A stretch of DNA of 64,000 nt, taken from assembly GCF_019924635.1 (NCBI RefSeq), contig NZ_CP065037.1, positions 248,001 to 312,000 of the forward strand, given 5' to 3'. Positions 37,325-48,121 of this stretch are shown one piece after another. Positions within the stretch are counted from its first letter, which is position 1. Each line of letters starts with the position of its first letter. This DNA is from Leifsonia sp. ZF2019. Its GTDB lineage: Bacteria > Actinomycetota > Actinomycetes > Actinomycetales > Microbacteriaceae. The notes under the pieces are model-generated. The model saw only the letters and a program-made list of their open reading frames with translations. It was not told the origin of the DNA and ran no database searches. The position numbers and the translations under genes were made by a program.

Positions 37325-37548
37325 GCCCCTATGCTTCCACGGTCGCGCGGCGGAGGGGAGGGGCGGGTGCGCTGCGCAGGCATTACGCAGGAACAGCACT
37401 CGACAGGCTCGTAGAAGTTCCTGTCTACGGAGATCTTCGGCGGCTGCTACTCAAACAGTCCGATCGCTGTGGTTCGACCGGCCAGGCGATGGAAATCTTC
37501 TGTCGACGCGCCAGTATCCGACGGGCGACATGATGAGGGGAGAACGCG

Positions 37549-37650
37549 ATGGAGCATTCGTACGAGGACATCGTGGCCGAGATGCAGGACCCGCAGGGTT
37601 TCGTGGCCAGCCTGTTCGCAGGCTGGAACCACGGGGCGGCGATGTTCTGA
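37549..37650 (+). CDS. Small 33-residue peptide, candidate exported peptide precursor
   Basis: A short gene beginning MEHSYEDIVAEMQDP and ending FAGWNHGAAMF. The first half is acidic and leader-like; the second half is hydrophobic and aromatic without Lys or Arg. GAGGGGAG ends 6 bases before the ATG, one of the best ribosome-binding sites in the window, which argues that it is translated. It is followed 51 bases later, in the same frame, by a TPR-like protein gene and then an ABC-2 exporter. I do not recognise the peptide. It could be a pheromone, bacteriocin or RiPP precursor exported by the transporter, or only a regulatory leader ORF. The 224-base upstream gap includes CGTAGA-N8-TCTACG (37410-37429). 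Confidence 0.6.
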   Translation: MEHSYEDIVAEMQDPQGFVASLFAGWNHGAAMF

Positions 37651-37701
37651 GTCCGACGGGCCGGTCGCTCTGCGCGGCCGGCCTCCCGGGCCTCGACTCT
37701 C

Positions 37702-38979
37702 ATGCTCGCACCGACACAACGCCTGGCTTCGGCGGTGCTGGCCTCGATCGAGGTCGCGCCGCCGGGGACCGTCGCCCCACGCTTCCATGATGCGATGCGC
37801 CACACCCTCCTCCCGGCACGGGAGTACCTGATCGCATCGCGCGAGGACCACGCACCCTTGACAGACCTTCGGATCCACCGGGATGAGAGCTCGCGCGCGA
37901 TGCTGGACCTCAACATCGCCGCGCTCGTCGAGGCGATCGGCTCCGACTGGCTGGGTCGCGCCATCGAAGGCGGCCCCGCAGACGAGACGATCAGAGGCAT
38001 TGTCGAGGCGTTCGCGTTGAACGTGCAGACGTCCGCGTACGCGCGACCACGCGACGGAGGCGGCGCTGAGGACGTCTACGTCGCCCTTCTCACGTACGTC
38101 AACGGCTTCGGCGGCTGGGACGACGCCCTCGCCATCGCCTCGGGTTTCGCTGCTCGGTGCGAGCGTCACGAAGAGGCTCGACCGCGGTGGCTCGCCTCGA
38201 TGCTCGCAGGCGTCGTCCTCGGACTCCACCGACGTGAACACGAGGGCGCTGCCCTCGTGGATCAGGCCATGACCGGCCTCGCGGGAACGGCGGAGGCGTT
38301 CTTCGCCGGGCTTCGCTGGGCATCCCTCGAGGTGAAGCGTCGCGGGCGGCTCGACGTCGCCGAACGCTACCTGGATCGCGCAGCAGACATCGCCGTTGCG
38401 GACACGGGAGCTGACAGGCTGTTGTTCTTGGGGTTGCGCGACAACGTGAGGGGCCTCATCGCTCTCAAGCGAGGAAGCAAGGAGGAAGCGCTCAGTCTCG
38501 TCGACAGCGCGATCGCCTGCCTGCGAGCCAGCGCCGAGTCCGATGACGAGAGCGGAGCCGGTCTCGCGCTGGCGGAGCGGGCGCGTTATTACTGGATGGC
38601 TCGACTCAATCGCATCCAGCTCGATATCTTCGCCGGCGCGCTCGACAGCGCTGCGCGATCCCTCCGCGAGCTCGTCGTGTGGGCGGAGGCGCACGATGCG
38701 CGGGCAGTCCACTCCACGCTGTCGGTGCTCGGCTTCGTCCTCGTCCGGCAAGGGCGCCCGGCCGAGGCCGTCTCCGTGCTCAGTGCGAGTCTCGATCGGC
38801 TTCGGACCGAGTACGACCCGTCCGTCGTCCGGCAAGTCCGAAAGATGCTGATCCGTTGCTTCGGCGAGCTGGGGGAGGAGTCGCTCGAAAAGCGGGTCAG
38901 GGACCTCACACCGTACTTCTGGCAAAAGTCAGCGGCTTTCGGCCGATCCACCGTCGCGGCGGAAAGCTCCACGCCATGA
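37702..38979 (+). CDS. TPR-like cytosolic protein coupled to an ABC-2 exporter
   Basis: This 425-residue soluble protein has no signal peptide or membrane segment. Residues about 190-410 are helical pairs of TPR style (for example YLDRAADIAVAD, LIALKRGSKEEALSLVDSAI, LVRQGRPAEAVSVLSAS). The N-terminal 190 residues match nothing I recognise and lack an obvious HTH, so it is not a plain RRNPP-type regulator. The ATG at 37702 has no clear ribosome-binding site. The 18 codons between it and the peptide's TGA are open, so translation may depend on the upstream peptide gene. Its stop overlaps the ATPase start (ATGA). It may bind or present the peptide, or regulate export. Confidence 0.8.
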   Translation: MLAPTQRLASAVLASIEVAPPGTVAPRFHDAMRHTLLPAREYLIASREDHAPLTDLRIHRDESSRAMLDLNIAALVEAIGSDWLGRAIEGGPADETIRGIVEAFALNVQTSAYARPRDGGGAEDVYVALLTYVNGFGGWDDALAIASGFAARCERHEEARPRWLASMLAGVVLGLHRREHEGAALVDQAMTGLAGTAEAFFAGLRWASLEVKRRGRLDVAERYLDRAADIAVADTGADRLLFLGLRDNVRGLIALKRGSKEEALSLVDSAIACLRASAESDDESGAGLALAERARYYWMARLNRIQLDIFAGALDSAARSLRELVVWAEAHDARAVHSTLSVLGFVLVRQGRPAEAVSVLSASLDRLRTEYDPSVVRQVRKMLIRCFGELGEESLEKRVRDLTPYFWQKSAAFGRSTVAAESSTP

Positions 38980-39932
38980 TCGAGCTCACCGACCTCACCC
39001 GCACCTTCACCACCCGCCGTGGGGCGCCGCCCGCCCGCGCACTGGCCGGGATCTCTTTCGGCATCGATCGCGGCGAGATCTTCGGACTCCTCGGACCGAA
39101 CGGGGCGGGGAAGACGACGACGGTGCGCATCCTCTCGACTCTGCTGACGCCGACGACGGGCACGGCCACCGTTGCCGGGTTAGACGTCGTGACGGAGGCG
39201 ATGGCGGTGCGGCGTCGCATCGGGGTCGCGTTCGGTGGGGAGCGCGGACTGTACGACCGGCTGTCGGCGCGGGACAACCTGCGCTTCGCCGCCCAGCTCT
39301 ATGACCTCCCCCGTCGAGACACGAAGCGGCGGATCGCTGAGGTGCTCGACGTGGTCGGGCTGGCAGATGCCGCGGACCAGCGAGTGGAGGCATTCTCGCG
39401 CGGGATGAAGCAGCGGCTCCACCTCGCGCGCGCCCTCATCCATGACCCCGAGATCGTCTTCCTCGACGAGCCGTCGTCCGGGTTGGATCCCGTCGCCGCG
39501 CGCGCCCTCCGCGAGCTTGTGCTCGAGCTGCGGCTCCGGGGCAAGACCGTGTTGTTGACCACTCACTACATGTTCGAGGCGGACGAGCTCTGTGATCGTC
39601 TCGCCGTGATCTCGGAAGGACGGGTGATCGCGCTCGACTCGCCGGAGAGGGTGAAAGCATCCGTCCGTGTCGCGAGCGTGTTGGAGGTCGACGTACTCGA
39701 CGATCACACCGGCGCCGTGCGAGCCGTCTCCGCGCTGCCGGGAGTCGTAAGTGTGCAGGTCGAGCAGACGGCCGCGGCGAGCCGGCTGATCGTCCGGATC
39801 GCGAGCGAGGGGGCGACGGACCTCCCGATCGTGCTCGGCGTCCTGGCCGACGTGCGCACCGGTGCCGCATTCGAGCGCCGTCCGACGCTTGAGGACGCCT
39901 ATGTCGCCCTGCTCGAGGAAAGGGCCTCGTGA
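38976..39932 (+). CDS. ABC-2 exporter ATP-binding protein (DrrA/CcmA-like)
   Basis: The protein has 318 residues. Walker A is LGPNGAGKTTT (about residues 40-50), the signature is AFSRGMKQRLHLARAL, Walker B is IVFLDEPSSGLD, and the H-loop is LLTTHYMFEADEL. A C-terminal domain of about 90 residues follows, as in DrrA-type exporter ATPases. It powers the two downstream permeases. It is stop/start coupled on both sides, so the TPR protein, ATPase and permeases should be made in fixed proportion. The substrate is unknown; the small peptide upstream is the obvious candidate. Confidence 0.93.
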   Translation: MIELTDLTRTFTTRRGAPPARALAGISFGIDRGEIFGLLGPNGAGKTTTVRILSTLLTPTTGTATVAGLDVVTEAMAVRRRIGVAFGGERGLYDRLSARDNLRFAAQLYDLPRRDTKRRIAEVLDVVGLADAADQRVEAFSRGMKQRLHLARALIHDPEIVFLDEPSSGLDPVAARALRELVLELRLRGKTVLLTTHYMFEADELCDRLAVISEGRVIALDSPERVKASVRVASVLEVDVLDDHTGAVRAVSALPGVVSVQVEQTAAASRLIVRIASEGATDLPIVLGVLADVRTGAAFERRPTLEDAYVALLEERAS

Positions 39933-40684
39933 GGCTGGCCGTCGCGGCGTGGCTGCTACAGCTGCGCCTGCTCTCACGGTCGCCGTTCTTCGTGTGGATG
40001 GCGCTGCTCACGCCACTCGTCTACTGCTCGCTGGCGGCCATGATGTCCGGAGGGCACGCCTCGACGCGCACGATCATCGGCGCCGGACTGATGGGCGCCT
40101 GGTCGACGACCCTCTTCGGTGCGGCGGAGGCACTCTTCATGCAGCGCTTCTCCGGGACGCTCGAGCTCCTCGTGGGTGGGCCGCGCTCGCTCGTCGCTCC
40201 GGTGCTCGGGTTCTCGCTCGCAACGGTCACGCTCGGCGTCTACTCGGTCGGCGCGGCATGGCTGTGGGCGCTGCTGGTGTTCCGCACGGGCGGTGCCTCC
40301 GGGGGTGCCGGAGACGCCGGAGCGATGGTGATCGCGGCGGTCGTCGCGATGGCCGGGCTGGTCGCTGTCGGGGTCTTCCTCGCGGCACTGTACGTCGTCA
40401 CCCGCAAGGCGATGGAGCTGACCAACATCCTCGAGTATCCGATCTGGCTGATCTGCGGGGTGCTCGTTCCGTCTGCAACGCTGTGGCCGCCGCTCGCGAT
40501 CGTGGGCCGCGTCCTCCCACTCGGCTGGGCGACGCCTGCCCTGGACCTGCCTTTCGGCACCGACTGGGCAGCCACACTCGGAGTCTCGCTGCTGCTTACG
40601 GCCGGCTACTTCGCAGCGGGCGTCGTGCTGCTGCGGCGAGTGGATGCGCTCGCTCGTGTGCGGGGAACGCTGAGGCTGCGATGA
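39929..40684 (+). CDS. ABC-2 type permease, first subunit
   Basis: This 251-residue membrane protein has six hydrophobic segments (for example RSPFFVWMALLTPLVYCSLAA near residues 16-36). It has an internal ELTNILEYPIWLICGVLVPS stretch typical of ABC-2 permeases. It starts with GTG overlapping the ATPase stop and ends overlapping the second permease. With that subunit it would form a heterodimeric exporter channel. Confidence 0.9.
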   Translation: MRLAVAAWLLQLRLLSRSPFFVWMALLTPLVYCSLAAMMSGGHASTRTIIGAGLMGAWSTTLFGAAEALFMQRFSGTLELLVGGPRSLVAPVLGFSLATVTLGVYSVGAAWLWALLVFRTGGASGGAGDAGAMVIAAVVAMAGLVAVGVFLAALYVVTRKAMELTNILEYPIWLICGVLVPSATLWPPLAIVGRVLPLGWATPALDLPFGTDWAATLGVSLLLTAGYFAAGVVLLRRVDALARVRGTLRLR

Positions 40685-41469
40685 CCTCCTGGCTCCGCAC
40701 GGCCCTGCTCTCGGGTGTCCTCGGCTATCGCGCGCTCTTCGCCTGGAGCACGCCCGGCCTGTTCGTCGCGTCGCTGGTGCTCGCTCCGGTGCTTCAGCTC
40801 GTCTTCTTCCTCTCGCTCGGCTCATCGCTCCGCTACGGCGACCCGGAGTTCTTCGTCGTAGGCAACGCGATCCAGGTCTCGGCTGCGGCGGGCGTGTCCG
40901 GACTCGTGTCCGTGATCGCCGACGAGCGTCGCTTCGGCACGCTCTCCGTCATCCTCGGCTCGCCGGGATCCGCCGTCGCGGTGTTCGTCGGACGGCTGAT
41001 CCCCGGAGTCGTGCTCGGCACTTCCGTCTCGGTCATGACCGGCCTCGTCGGTCTGGCGTTCACAGGCTCCGGCACAACGCTCGCAGGGTCGCTCTTCTTC
41101 GTGCTGACTGCCGTCGTCGCCGCTTCGTCCTGCTCGGCGCTCGGCCTGGCTTTGAGCGCTCTCGGGCTCGTCTACCGGGACATCTACCAGGTCGCGACCG
41201 CAGCGTACCTCGCCCTGCTCGTCTTCAGCGGCTCCAACGTCGACCGCGCCGACATCCCGCCCGTCGTCCGCTGGATCGGCGACCTGCTTCCCACGACGCA
41301 CGCGATCGAGGCGGCACGTGGTGTACTGGCGGGCGGGTCTGCGGGGGCCGCGGCACCCCTGCTTCTCGCCGAGCTCGGAGTCGGGGTCGCCTGGGGAGCA
41401 GCTGCGCTGATCGGAATGCGGATCCTTGCCCATCGGGCGCGCGTGCTGGCGCGGGTGGAGCTGTTCTGA
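40681..41469 (+). CDS. ABC-2 type permease, second subunit
   Basis: This 262-residue membrane protein has six hydrophobic segments. An extended loop, VIADERRFGTLSVILGSPGS, resembles the ABC-2 cytoplasmic loop (ERRxGTLE-like), and a late LPTTHAIEAARGVLAGG segment is typical of the family. The ATG overlaps the first permease stop. It is the last gene of the operon; pheA has its own promoter 100 bases later. Confidence 0.9.
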   Translation: MTSWLRTALLSGVLGYRALFAWSTPGLFVASLVLAPVLQLVFFLSLGSSLRYGDPEFFVVGNAIQVSAAAGVSGLVSVIADERRFGTLSVILGSPGSAVAVFVGRLIPGVVLGTSVSVMTGLVGLAFTGSGTTLAGSLFFVLTAVVAASSCSALGLALSALGLVYRDIYQVATAAYLALLVFSGSNVDRADIPPVVRWIGDLLPTTHAIEAARGVLAGGSAGAAAPLLLAELGVGVAWGAAALIGMRILAHRARVLARVELF

Positions 41470-41570
41470 GCGACTCCGCCCCGCCGGGACGACGGCGCCC
41501 CGGCGCCGGAGCGCATTCGTCCCGAAACGCCGCAGTCGGCTCCCCGCCACCCCTCGCTAAGCTGAACGCC

Positions 41571-48033: not shown

Positions 48034-48121
48034 GGAGGGCTGTCCGAGCGGCCGATGGAGCCAGTCTTGAAAACTGGTGGGCAGAAATGTCTCGTGGGTT
48101 CGAATCCCACGCCCTCCGCCA
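48034..48121 (+). tRNA. tRNA-Ser (anticodon TGA)
   Basis: An 88-nt tRNA. The acceptor stem GGAGGGC pairs with GCCCTCC (48111-48117), followed by discriminator G and encoded CCA. The anticodon arm CCAGT-CTTGAAA-ACTGG gives anticodon TGA, reading UCA and UCG serine codons. A long variable arm (GGGCAGAAATGTCTC) marks a type II serine tRNA, and the T arm is GTGGGTTCGAATCCCAC. A TAGACT box at 48002-48007 is a plausible -10. Confidence 0.97.

What the first reader, a model, noticed from the sequence alone, without database searches (positions are those of the whole stretch)
37549..41469. Peptide / TPR-like protein / ABC-2 exporter operon: candidate undescribed peptide export or signalling system
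Seen: a 33-codon gene with a strong ribosome-binding site, then a 425-residue TPR-like protein, then an ATPase and two ABC-2 permeases. The last four genes are joined by ATGA/GTGA overlaps. The peptide has an acidic leader-like half and an aromatic hydrophobic end (FAGWNHGAAMF). Known: small peptides next to dedicated ABC exporters are often pheromones, bacteriocins or RiPPs, and TPR proteins often bind such peptides. Inferred: the peptide is the exporter's cargo and the TPR protein its partner, receptor or immunity/regulatory factor. No known RiPP enzyme lies nearby and the TPR protein shows no HTH, so it does not fit the RRNPP pattern.
Basis: partly seen in the sequence, partly recalled or inferred. 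Interest (0 to 1): 0.85.

Follow-up and report, generated by a model that had tools for sequence, protein, structure and literature searches.

The report
Mobile peptide-export cassette in Leifsonia
A small, strongly conserved bacterial peptide gene sits in a self-contained gene cassette with a TPR protein and a two-part ABC exporter, and in relatives also with a peptide-cutting enzyme and a spare ribosome-assembly protein, which suggests an undescribed secreted-peptide system whose role is still unknown.

Summary
A 33-codon gene with a good Shine-Dalgarno, a 425-residue TPR protein, an ATPase and two ABC-2 permeases lie at 37549-41469. The peptide is a real gene. It precedes the TPR gene in all 5 of 28 genus genomes that carry the TPR protein (Leifsonia, by the names of its closest relatives). 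Its consensus is YDxIVxEMSDxQGFVASLFAGWNHGAAMx, with dN below dS in 10 of 10 pairs. A hairpin follows its stop codon in all 5. Comparison with empty sites shows a 4.18-kb insertion (37374-41553) between pgm and pheA. In the 4 relatives the cassette sits elsewhere and goes on with an M16 peptidase and an RsgA-like GTPase, both missing here. In one relative, empty sites in two genomes bracket those seven genes. Best reading: an undescribed cassette for making, trimming and exporting a ribosomal peptide, with the TPR protein as peptide-binding partner. Cargo identity, peptide binding and biological role are inferred. AlphaFold gave no confident docking, and one distant TPR-ABC operon (Frondihabitans) lacks a recognisable peptide. 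The main rival is a regulatory leader peptide. Novelty: new variant of a known kind.

The parts
37374..41553 (.). inserted cassette (4,180 bp) between pgm and pheA
   Evidence: in G001 and G013 window positions 37373 and 41554 are joined with 2 bp between them; in 24 of 27 other genus genomes the aligned flank pieces lie 120 bp or less apart. The names pgm and pheA are my reading of the translations; no family search was run on them.
37536..37542 (+). Shine-Dalgarno AGGGGAG of the peptide gene
37549..37650 (+). 33-codon peptide gene, MEHSYEDIVAEMQDPQGFVASLFAGWNHGAAMF
   Evidence: conserved in 4 of 4 genus relatives that carry the TPR gene
37648..37695 (+). RNA hairpin that begins at the peptide stop codon
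   Evidence: a hairpin at about the same place after the stop in all 5 loci, with different stem sequences
37702..38979 (+). TPR superhelix protein, 425 aa
38976..39932 (+). ABC ATPase, DrrA-like, 318 aa
39929..40684 (+). ABC-2 permease 1, 251 aa
   Evidence: below the Pfam cut-off
40681..41469 (+). ABC-2 permease 2, 262 aa

Best explanation
A horizontally moving cassette that makes, trims and exports a small ribosomal peptide. The 33-residue precursor is made in excess of the other proteins; the hairpin after its stop probably cuts transcription of the downstream genes or protects the peptide mRNA. The acidic N-terminal half (YDEIVAEMSDxQ) acts as a leader. The TPR superhelix binds the precursor and hands it on. 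An M16 protease removes the leader: the cassette's own in the relatives, a host enzyme here. The ATPase and two ABC-2 permeases export the aromatic C-terminal part (about GFVASLFAGWNHGAAMF). Shown: the peptide is a conserved coding gene, the genes form one insertable unit, and the protease and GTPase stand directly behind it in the relatives. Inferred: peptide excess, leader, TPR binding, cleavage, export. The most likely role is a bacteriocin or signal against or for close relatives; this is not shown.
For: Peptide present and first in 5 of 5 genus carriers, at 52-78% identity against 40-43% for the TPR protein, 55-64% for the ATPase and 52-63% for the permeases, and under purifying selection. 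TPR and permease 2 co-occur in exactly the same 5 of 28 genomes. Empty sites bracket these genes in the window's genome and the seven genes in G025 (two empty-site genomes read). M16 peptidases with an invariant HxxEH stand directly after permease 2 in 4 of 4 relatives. M16 proteases remove leaders of some class III lanthipeptides (PMC10885120, two passages). ABC exporters of short peptides exist (PptAB: PMC7564271 and PMC5167397, listing with the start of each abstract). The TPR model resembles peptide-binding TPR proteins such as LGN, NprR and Rap.
Against: No confident peptide docking in two AlphaFold models of linked peptide and TPR (peptide region pLDDT about 40-60). Frondihabitans G269 has TPR-ATPase-permease-permease with no recognisable peptide, and no M16 or RsgA-like match in the 13 kb fetched. 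The window's own cassette has no protease, so trimming here would need a host enzyme or no trimming. No RiPP-modifying enzyme was recognised and I see no Sec-type signal in the peptide. The DrrA-like ATPase fits drug export equally well. Borders of the longer cassette are known in G025 only; for G014 the search gave one flank and no clean empty site, and for G018 and G023 it was not tested on their own DNA.
Confidence: 0.5

Rival explanations
1. Regulatory leader peptide. The small ORF is translated only to sense a condition of the ribosome. A ribosome stalled at its end melts the hairpin that starts at or just after the stop codon and lets polymerase or ribosomes reach a resistance operon: drug exporter, peptidase that degrades a peptide inhibitor, ribosome GTPase. 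The peptide itself is not exported.
For: In 5 of 5 loci the hairpin's 5' arm starts 2 bases before to 14 bases after the last base of the stop codon and its 3' arm ends at +43 to +49, with unrelated stem sequences; fold z-scores -2.2 to -3.4. In G025 an outer stem also pairs with a GGGAGA before the TPR start. The codons near the stop are among the most conserved. A DrrA-like ATPase and an RsgA-like ribosome GTPase fit a resistance operon.
Against: The N-terminal half of the peptide is also conserved (EM invariant). No antiterminator pairing: the 5' arm pairs with the upstream RNA no better than with shuffles in 5 of 5 loci. The hairpins have no U-tract and, as read from the sequences, do not cover the TPR ribosome-binding site in all loci. 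A TPR protein is not expected in such operons (recalled).
Confidence: 0.23
2. Peptide signalling with an intracellular receptor, in the manner of Rap-Phr or Rgg-SHP. The peptide is exported by the ABC pair, trimmed, re-imported, and binds the TPR protein, which changes the activity of an unknown partner protein.
Confidence: 0.15
3. Ordinary ABC drug exporter with a TPR accessory protein, the small ORF being incidental.
For: Best ATPase model is DrrA, daunorubicin resistance (below its cut-off). The distant Frondihabitans operon lacks a recognisable peptide.
Against: Strong conservation of the small ORF at different insertion sites makes it part of the unit.
Confidence: 0.07

Closest known systems
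PptAB and short hydrophobic peptides of streptococci (Rgg/SHP)
   Same: short peptide with aromatic or hydrophobic C-terminus, ABC exporter, TPR protein as partner
   Different: here one operon with two different permeases; the TPR protein has no recognised HTH; another phylum; M16 and RsgA-like genes in relatives
Rap-Phr (RRNPP)
   Same: adjacent small peptide and TPR protein without HTH; same overall TPR fold class
   Different: peptide gene comes first, no Sec signal seen, ABC exporter genes in the operon
RiPP clusters with M16 leader proteases (class III lanthipeptides)
   Same: acidic leader-like half, small core, M16 peptidase, ABC exporter
   Different: no modifying enzyme recognised in the cassette; TPR and RsgA-like proteins not known to me from such clusters; M16 absent in the window
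LanFEG-type and DrrAB-type ABC-2 transporters
   Same: one ATPase with one or two ABC-2 permeases (drrA 1e-84, lantibiotic protection ATPase 1e-45)
   Different: below the curated cut-offs of both models; linked to a peptide and a TPR gene
Ribosome-attenuation leader peptides of resistance genes
   Same: small ORF followed by a hairpin before the structural genes
   Different: both halves of the peptide conserved, no antiterminator found, mobile unit with a peptidase in relatives

Membership tests
RRNPP quorum-sensing systems | TPR receptor encoded next to a small propeptide gene | tested here: met
   5 of 5 genus carriers
RRNPP quorum-sensing systems | receptor fold of the Rap/NprR type | tested here: inconclusive
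RRNPP quorum-sensing systems | N-terminal HTH or Rap-type effector bundle with a known target | tested here: inconclusive
   no HTH found by Pfam or NCBIfam; Rap itself lacks one
RRNPP quorum-sensing systems | mature pheromone re-imported and bound by the receptor | not testable with these tools
   needs binding and import assays
RiPP | precursor with leader and core | tested here: inconclusive
   acidic conserved N-half and aromatic C-half; cleavage unknown
RiPP | dedicated modifying enzyme in the cluster | tested here: not met
   the window insert holds the five genes and the G025 insert seven; the window's five proteins and the relatives' M16 and RsgA-like proteins matched no modifying-enzyme family
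RiPP | leader protease | tested here: inconclusive
   M16 directly downstream in 4 of 4 relatives, absent in the window's cassette (only a 26% homolog elsewhere in that genome)
DrrAB drug exporter | ATPase above the TIGR01188 cut-off | tested here: not met
   284 bits against 312
Leader-peptide attenuation | mutually exclusive terminator and antiterminator pairing | tested here: not met
   upstream pairing no better than shuffles in 5 of 5; attenuation by direct occlusion is not excluded

The most novel reading that the evidence does not exclude
A new class of mobile peptide-weapon cassette whose peptide acts on ribosome assembly. The RsgA-like GTPase in the longer cassettes would be a resistant spare of the target or of a protein at the target site, the TPR protein would keep the peptide harmless until export, and the short cassette in this window would rely on the exporter for protection.
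Probability: 0.1. Interest if true: 0.85.

Novelty: new variant of a known kind. Interest (0 to 1): 0.6.

Why it matters
Peptide signals and peptide weapons of the Microbacteriaceae are little known (recalled). A cassette defined closely by empty sites, with one small conserved peptide, a two-permease exporter and, in a longer form, a protease and a spare ribosome-assembly GTPase, gives a compact object to test. If the peptide is exported, it adds an exporter-plus-TPR route to small-peptide secretion in Actinomycetota. If it is a leader peptide, it is an unusually conserved one.

Tried and rejected
Peptide elsewhere: an LFA.W.H DNA pattern matched 55 of 398 family genomes, the window's and G018 among them. 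I read the frames of 10 of the listed places, in 8 stretches from 7 genomes of other genera. Nine lie in open frames of 85 to 754 codons, including three in G383 made by a DNA repeat; one (L042) lies in an arginine-rich 50-codon frame ending LFARWAHVSLP, without the QG or the acidic half. None of the 8 stretches holds a TPR, ABC-2 permease, M16 or RsgA-like relative; only unrelated ABC ATPases were hit, in 3 of the 8. I call these chance. The other listed places were not checked. A longer pattern over the genome-contig collection gave 2 stretches: L012 is identical to the G023 operon; L011, Bacteroidetes, is a 42-codon frame with no relative of the other genes in its 8 kb.

Wider family: a back-translated pattern search with the TPR protein in genome contigs confirmed no relative. 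Order search, 5 of 396 genomes: the four besides the window's are weak partial TPR matches (E 1e-11 to 1e-16); tblastn with the window's ABC proteins found none in their stretches, and a family search of neighbours was made for two of the four. Family search, 3 of 398: the window, G018 and Frondihabitans G269. In some searches at most 4 candidates per genome were scored, so misses are possible. No relative of the TPR protein in plasmids, phages or viral contigs; peptide not in plasmids at E up to 1.

RsgA-like homologs well above the housekeeping copies in four other genera (G360, G137, G338, G044; 218-351 bits) stand without a TPR, ABC-2 or M16 gene of this kind in the 12-19.5 kb fetched. So the GTPase subfamily is not tied to the peptide.

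PADLOC gave only generic ATPase hits for 6 proteins. PHROGs gave nothing significant for 2. No word of 7 or 8 bases is shared by three of the five 170-base upstream regions. No target-site duplication of 4-12 bases and no inverted match of 5 or more between the 60-base ends of the insert. A search for the empty site of the G014 cassette found the left flank in many genomes but no matching right flank, so its borders stay open. Peptide-TPR resemblance: MAFFT laid FAGWNHGAAM over the TPR's FGGWDDALAI; I treat this as chance. Peptide and TPR genes are in one frame in 2 of 5 loci (G000, G014) and not in the other 3, so programmed read-through is rejected.

Hairpin control: windows of 60 bases as stable or more stable make up 1.7, 1.1, 3.9, 4.7 and 17.6% of the surrounding sequence, so single hairpins are modest and only the set is notable.

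Literature: ten listings. None showed a peptide-TPR-ABC-M16-RsgA system; the library lacks most subscription journals and the searches were narrow. Of PMC10075063, PMC10885120 and PMC9290621 I saw passages; of the others only listings.
Full report
What is there. The window carries an operon-like row on the + strand: a 33-codon gene (37549-37650), a 425-residue TPR protein (37702-38979), an ABC ATPase (38976-39932) and two ABC-2 permeases (39929-40684, 40681-41469). The last four genes overlap by ATGA, GTGA and ATGA, and the peptide gene has AGGGGAG six bases before its ATG. The TPR gene has no clear Shine-Dalgarno. The 51 bases between peptide and TPR gene hold a hairpin that starts at the peptide's stop codon.

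Is the small ORF a gene? Yes. The TPR protein has relatives in 5 of 28 genus genomes, the window's included. Names given by sources call the closest named relatives Leifsonia. In all 5 a small ORF precedes the TPR gene. The five peptides are 31-33 residues long and share M1, E11, M12, Q16, G17, A20, L22, F23, A24, W26, H28 and M32. Identity to the window's peptide is 52-78%, while the TPR proteins keep 40-43%. dN is below dS in 10 of 10 pairs over the whole peptide, and in 10 of 10 over the last 18 columns; for G000 and G023 there are 6 synonymous and 0 non-synonymous codon changes in those 18. Pairs with G014, the most distant, come closest to dN = dS (0.32 against 0.41 in the tail, G014-G023).

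One unit. Permease 2 occurs in exactly the same 5 of 28 genomes as the TPR protein. The genes on both sides of the window's operon (pgm on the left, pheA on the right, named from their translations without a family search) lie side by side in other genomes of the genus. In G001 and G013 window positions 37373 and 41554 are separated by 2 bp. In 24 of 27 other genomes the aligned flank pieces lie 120 bp or less apart; in the other three (G022, G016, G023) the gap is 274, 843 and 1,319 bp. The insert is therefore 37374-41553, 4,180 bp, and holds the five genes and no other that I recognised. It shows no target-site duplication or inverted ends. Third-position GC of its four larger genes is 0.80-0.86, against 0.95-0.96 in the flanking genes.

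The longer form. In the four relatives the cassette lies at other places: by clpP-like DNA in G014, between his genes and a lexA-like gene in G018, and beside glycosylase-like and PadR-like genes in G025 and G023 (gene names from reading the translations). In 4 of 4, permease 2 is followed directly by an M16 peptidase (PF00675 and PF05193) and an RsgA-like GTPase (PF03193). The M16 proteins keep HxxEH and downstream E residues. The GTPases keep GHSGVGKS, DTPG and a C-C-H-C cluster. For G025, empty sites in G001 and G013 place the insert at about L006:2811-9250, the span of the seven genes with their promoter region; the other genomes of that call were not resolved one by one. For G014 the same kind of search gave no clean empty site; G018 and G023 were not tested with their own DNA. 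The window's genome has only distant homologs of the peptidase (26%) and the GTPase (34%) elsewhere. So the window holds a five-gene form of a cassette that has seven genes in its relatives.

The hairpin. In 5 of 5 loci a stem of 13-20 pairs starts between 2 bases before and 14 bases after the last base of the stop codon, and ends 43-49 bases after it, with unrelated stem sequences. z-scores are -3.4, -3.3, -2.7, -2.2 and -2.8. As a control, 1.1-17.6% of nearby 60-base windows are as stable, so it is the repeated placement that counts. None has a U-tract, and none has an upstream antiterminator better than shuffles. A partial terminator or an mRNA 3' end, giving more peptide than exporter, is my preferred reading. 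A ribosome-controlled switch is the rival.

How it probably works. A precursor peptide with an acidic leader-like half is made in excess, bound by the TPR protein, trimmed by M16 where present, and exported by the ABC-2 pair. Conserved coding, unit structure and gene content are shown; the handling steps are inferred. M16 proteases are known leader proteases of some class III lanthipeptides (PMC10885120, passages). PptAB shows that short peptides can leave through simple ABC exporters (listing). rsgA is listed as duplicated, though not within a cluster, in a berninamycin producer (PMC9290621 Table 3, passages). That makes a self-protection role for the RsgA-like protein thinkable but no more; the same subfamily occurs without the other genes in four other genera.

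Against this reading. Frondihabitans (G269; named through) has TPR, ATPase at 44% identity and two permeases in the same order. It has no recognisable peptide upstream, and no M16 or RsgA-like match in the 13 kb fetched. Its TPR protein is about 26% identical over part of its length, so it may be a cousin system with another cargo or an unlike small ORF. The ATPase is closest to DrrA but below that model's cut-off.

Verdict. The new facts are the mobile-cassette nature with close borders, the M16 and RsgA-like genes in the longer form, and the hairpin kept in place behind the peptide gene.

Noticed in passing
L050:3336-3401 and L050:7468-7533: The Frondihabitans TPR-ABC operon lies between two 98% identical 66-bp direct repeats, each with a GAGGAGTCGCT...AGCGACCCCTC inverted pattern and next to GC-rich short repeats; possible borders of a mobile unit.
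   Followed up: partly
G360:C1:1659683-1660657, G137:C1:854383-855327, G338:C58:2144-3064, G044:C1:52429-53283: RsgA-like GTPases close to the cassette's, well above housekeeping scores, without the other cassette genes, in four other genera of the family.
   Followed up: partly
L118 (G016) and L119 (G023), between pgm and pheA: The same pgm-pheA gap holds other DNA of 843 and 1,319 bp in two genomes; perhaps an insertion hotspot.
   Followed up: no
L006 and L009: In G025 and G023 the seven-gene cassette lies beside similar glycosylase-like and PadR-like genes but in opposite orientation to them.
   Followed up: no
L047:3158-6433: A weakly matching TPR-like protein gene overlaps a LuxR-type response regulator gene, next to a tRNA synthetase-like gene.
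   Followed up: no
G383:C1:2198528-2198792: Three tandem copies about 121 bp apart that spell LFAQWAHG in one frame; a DNA repeat rather than peptide genes.
   Followed up: partly
window 48034-48121: tRNA-Ser (TGA), the only tRNA gene found in the window.
   Followed up: no
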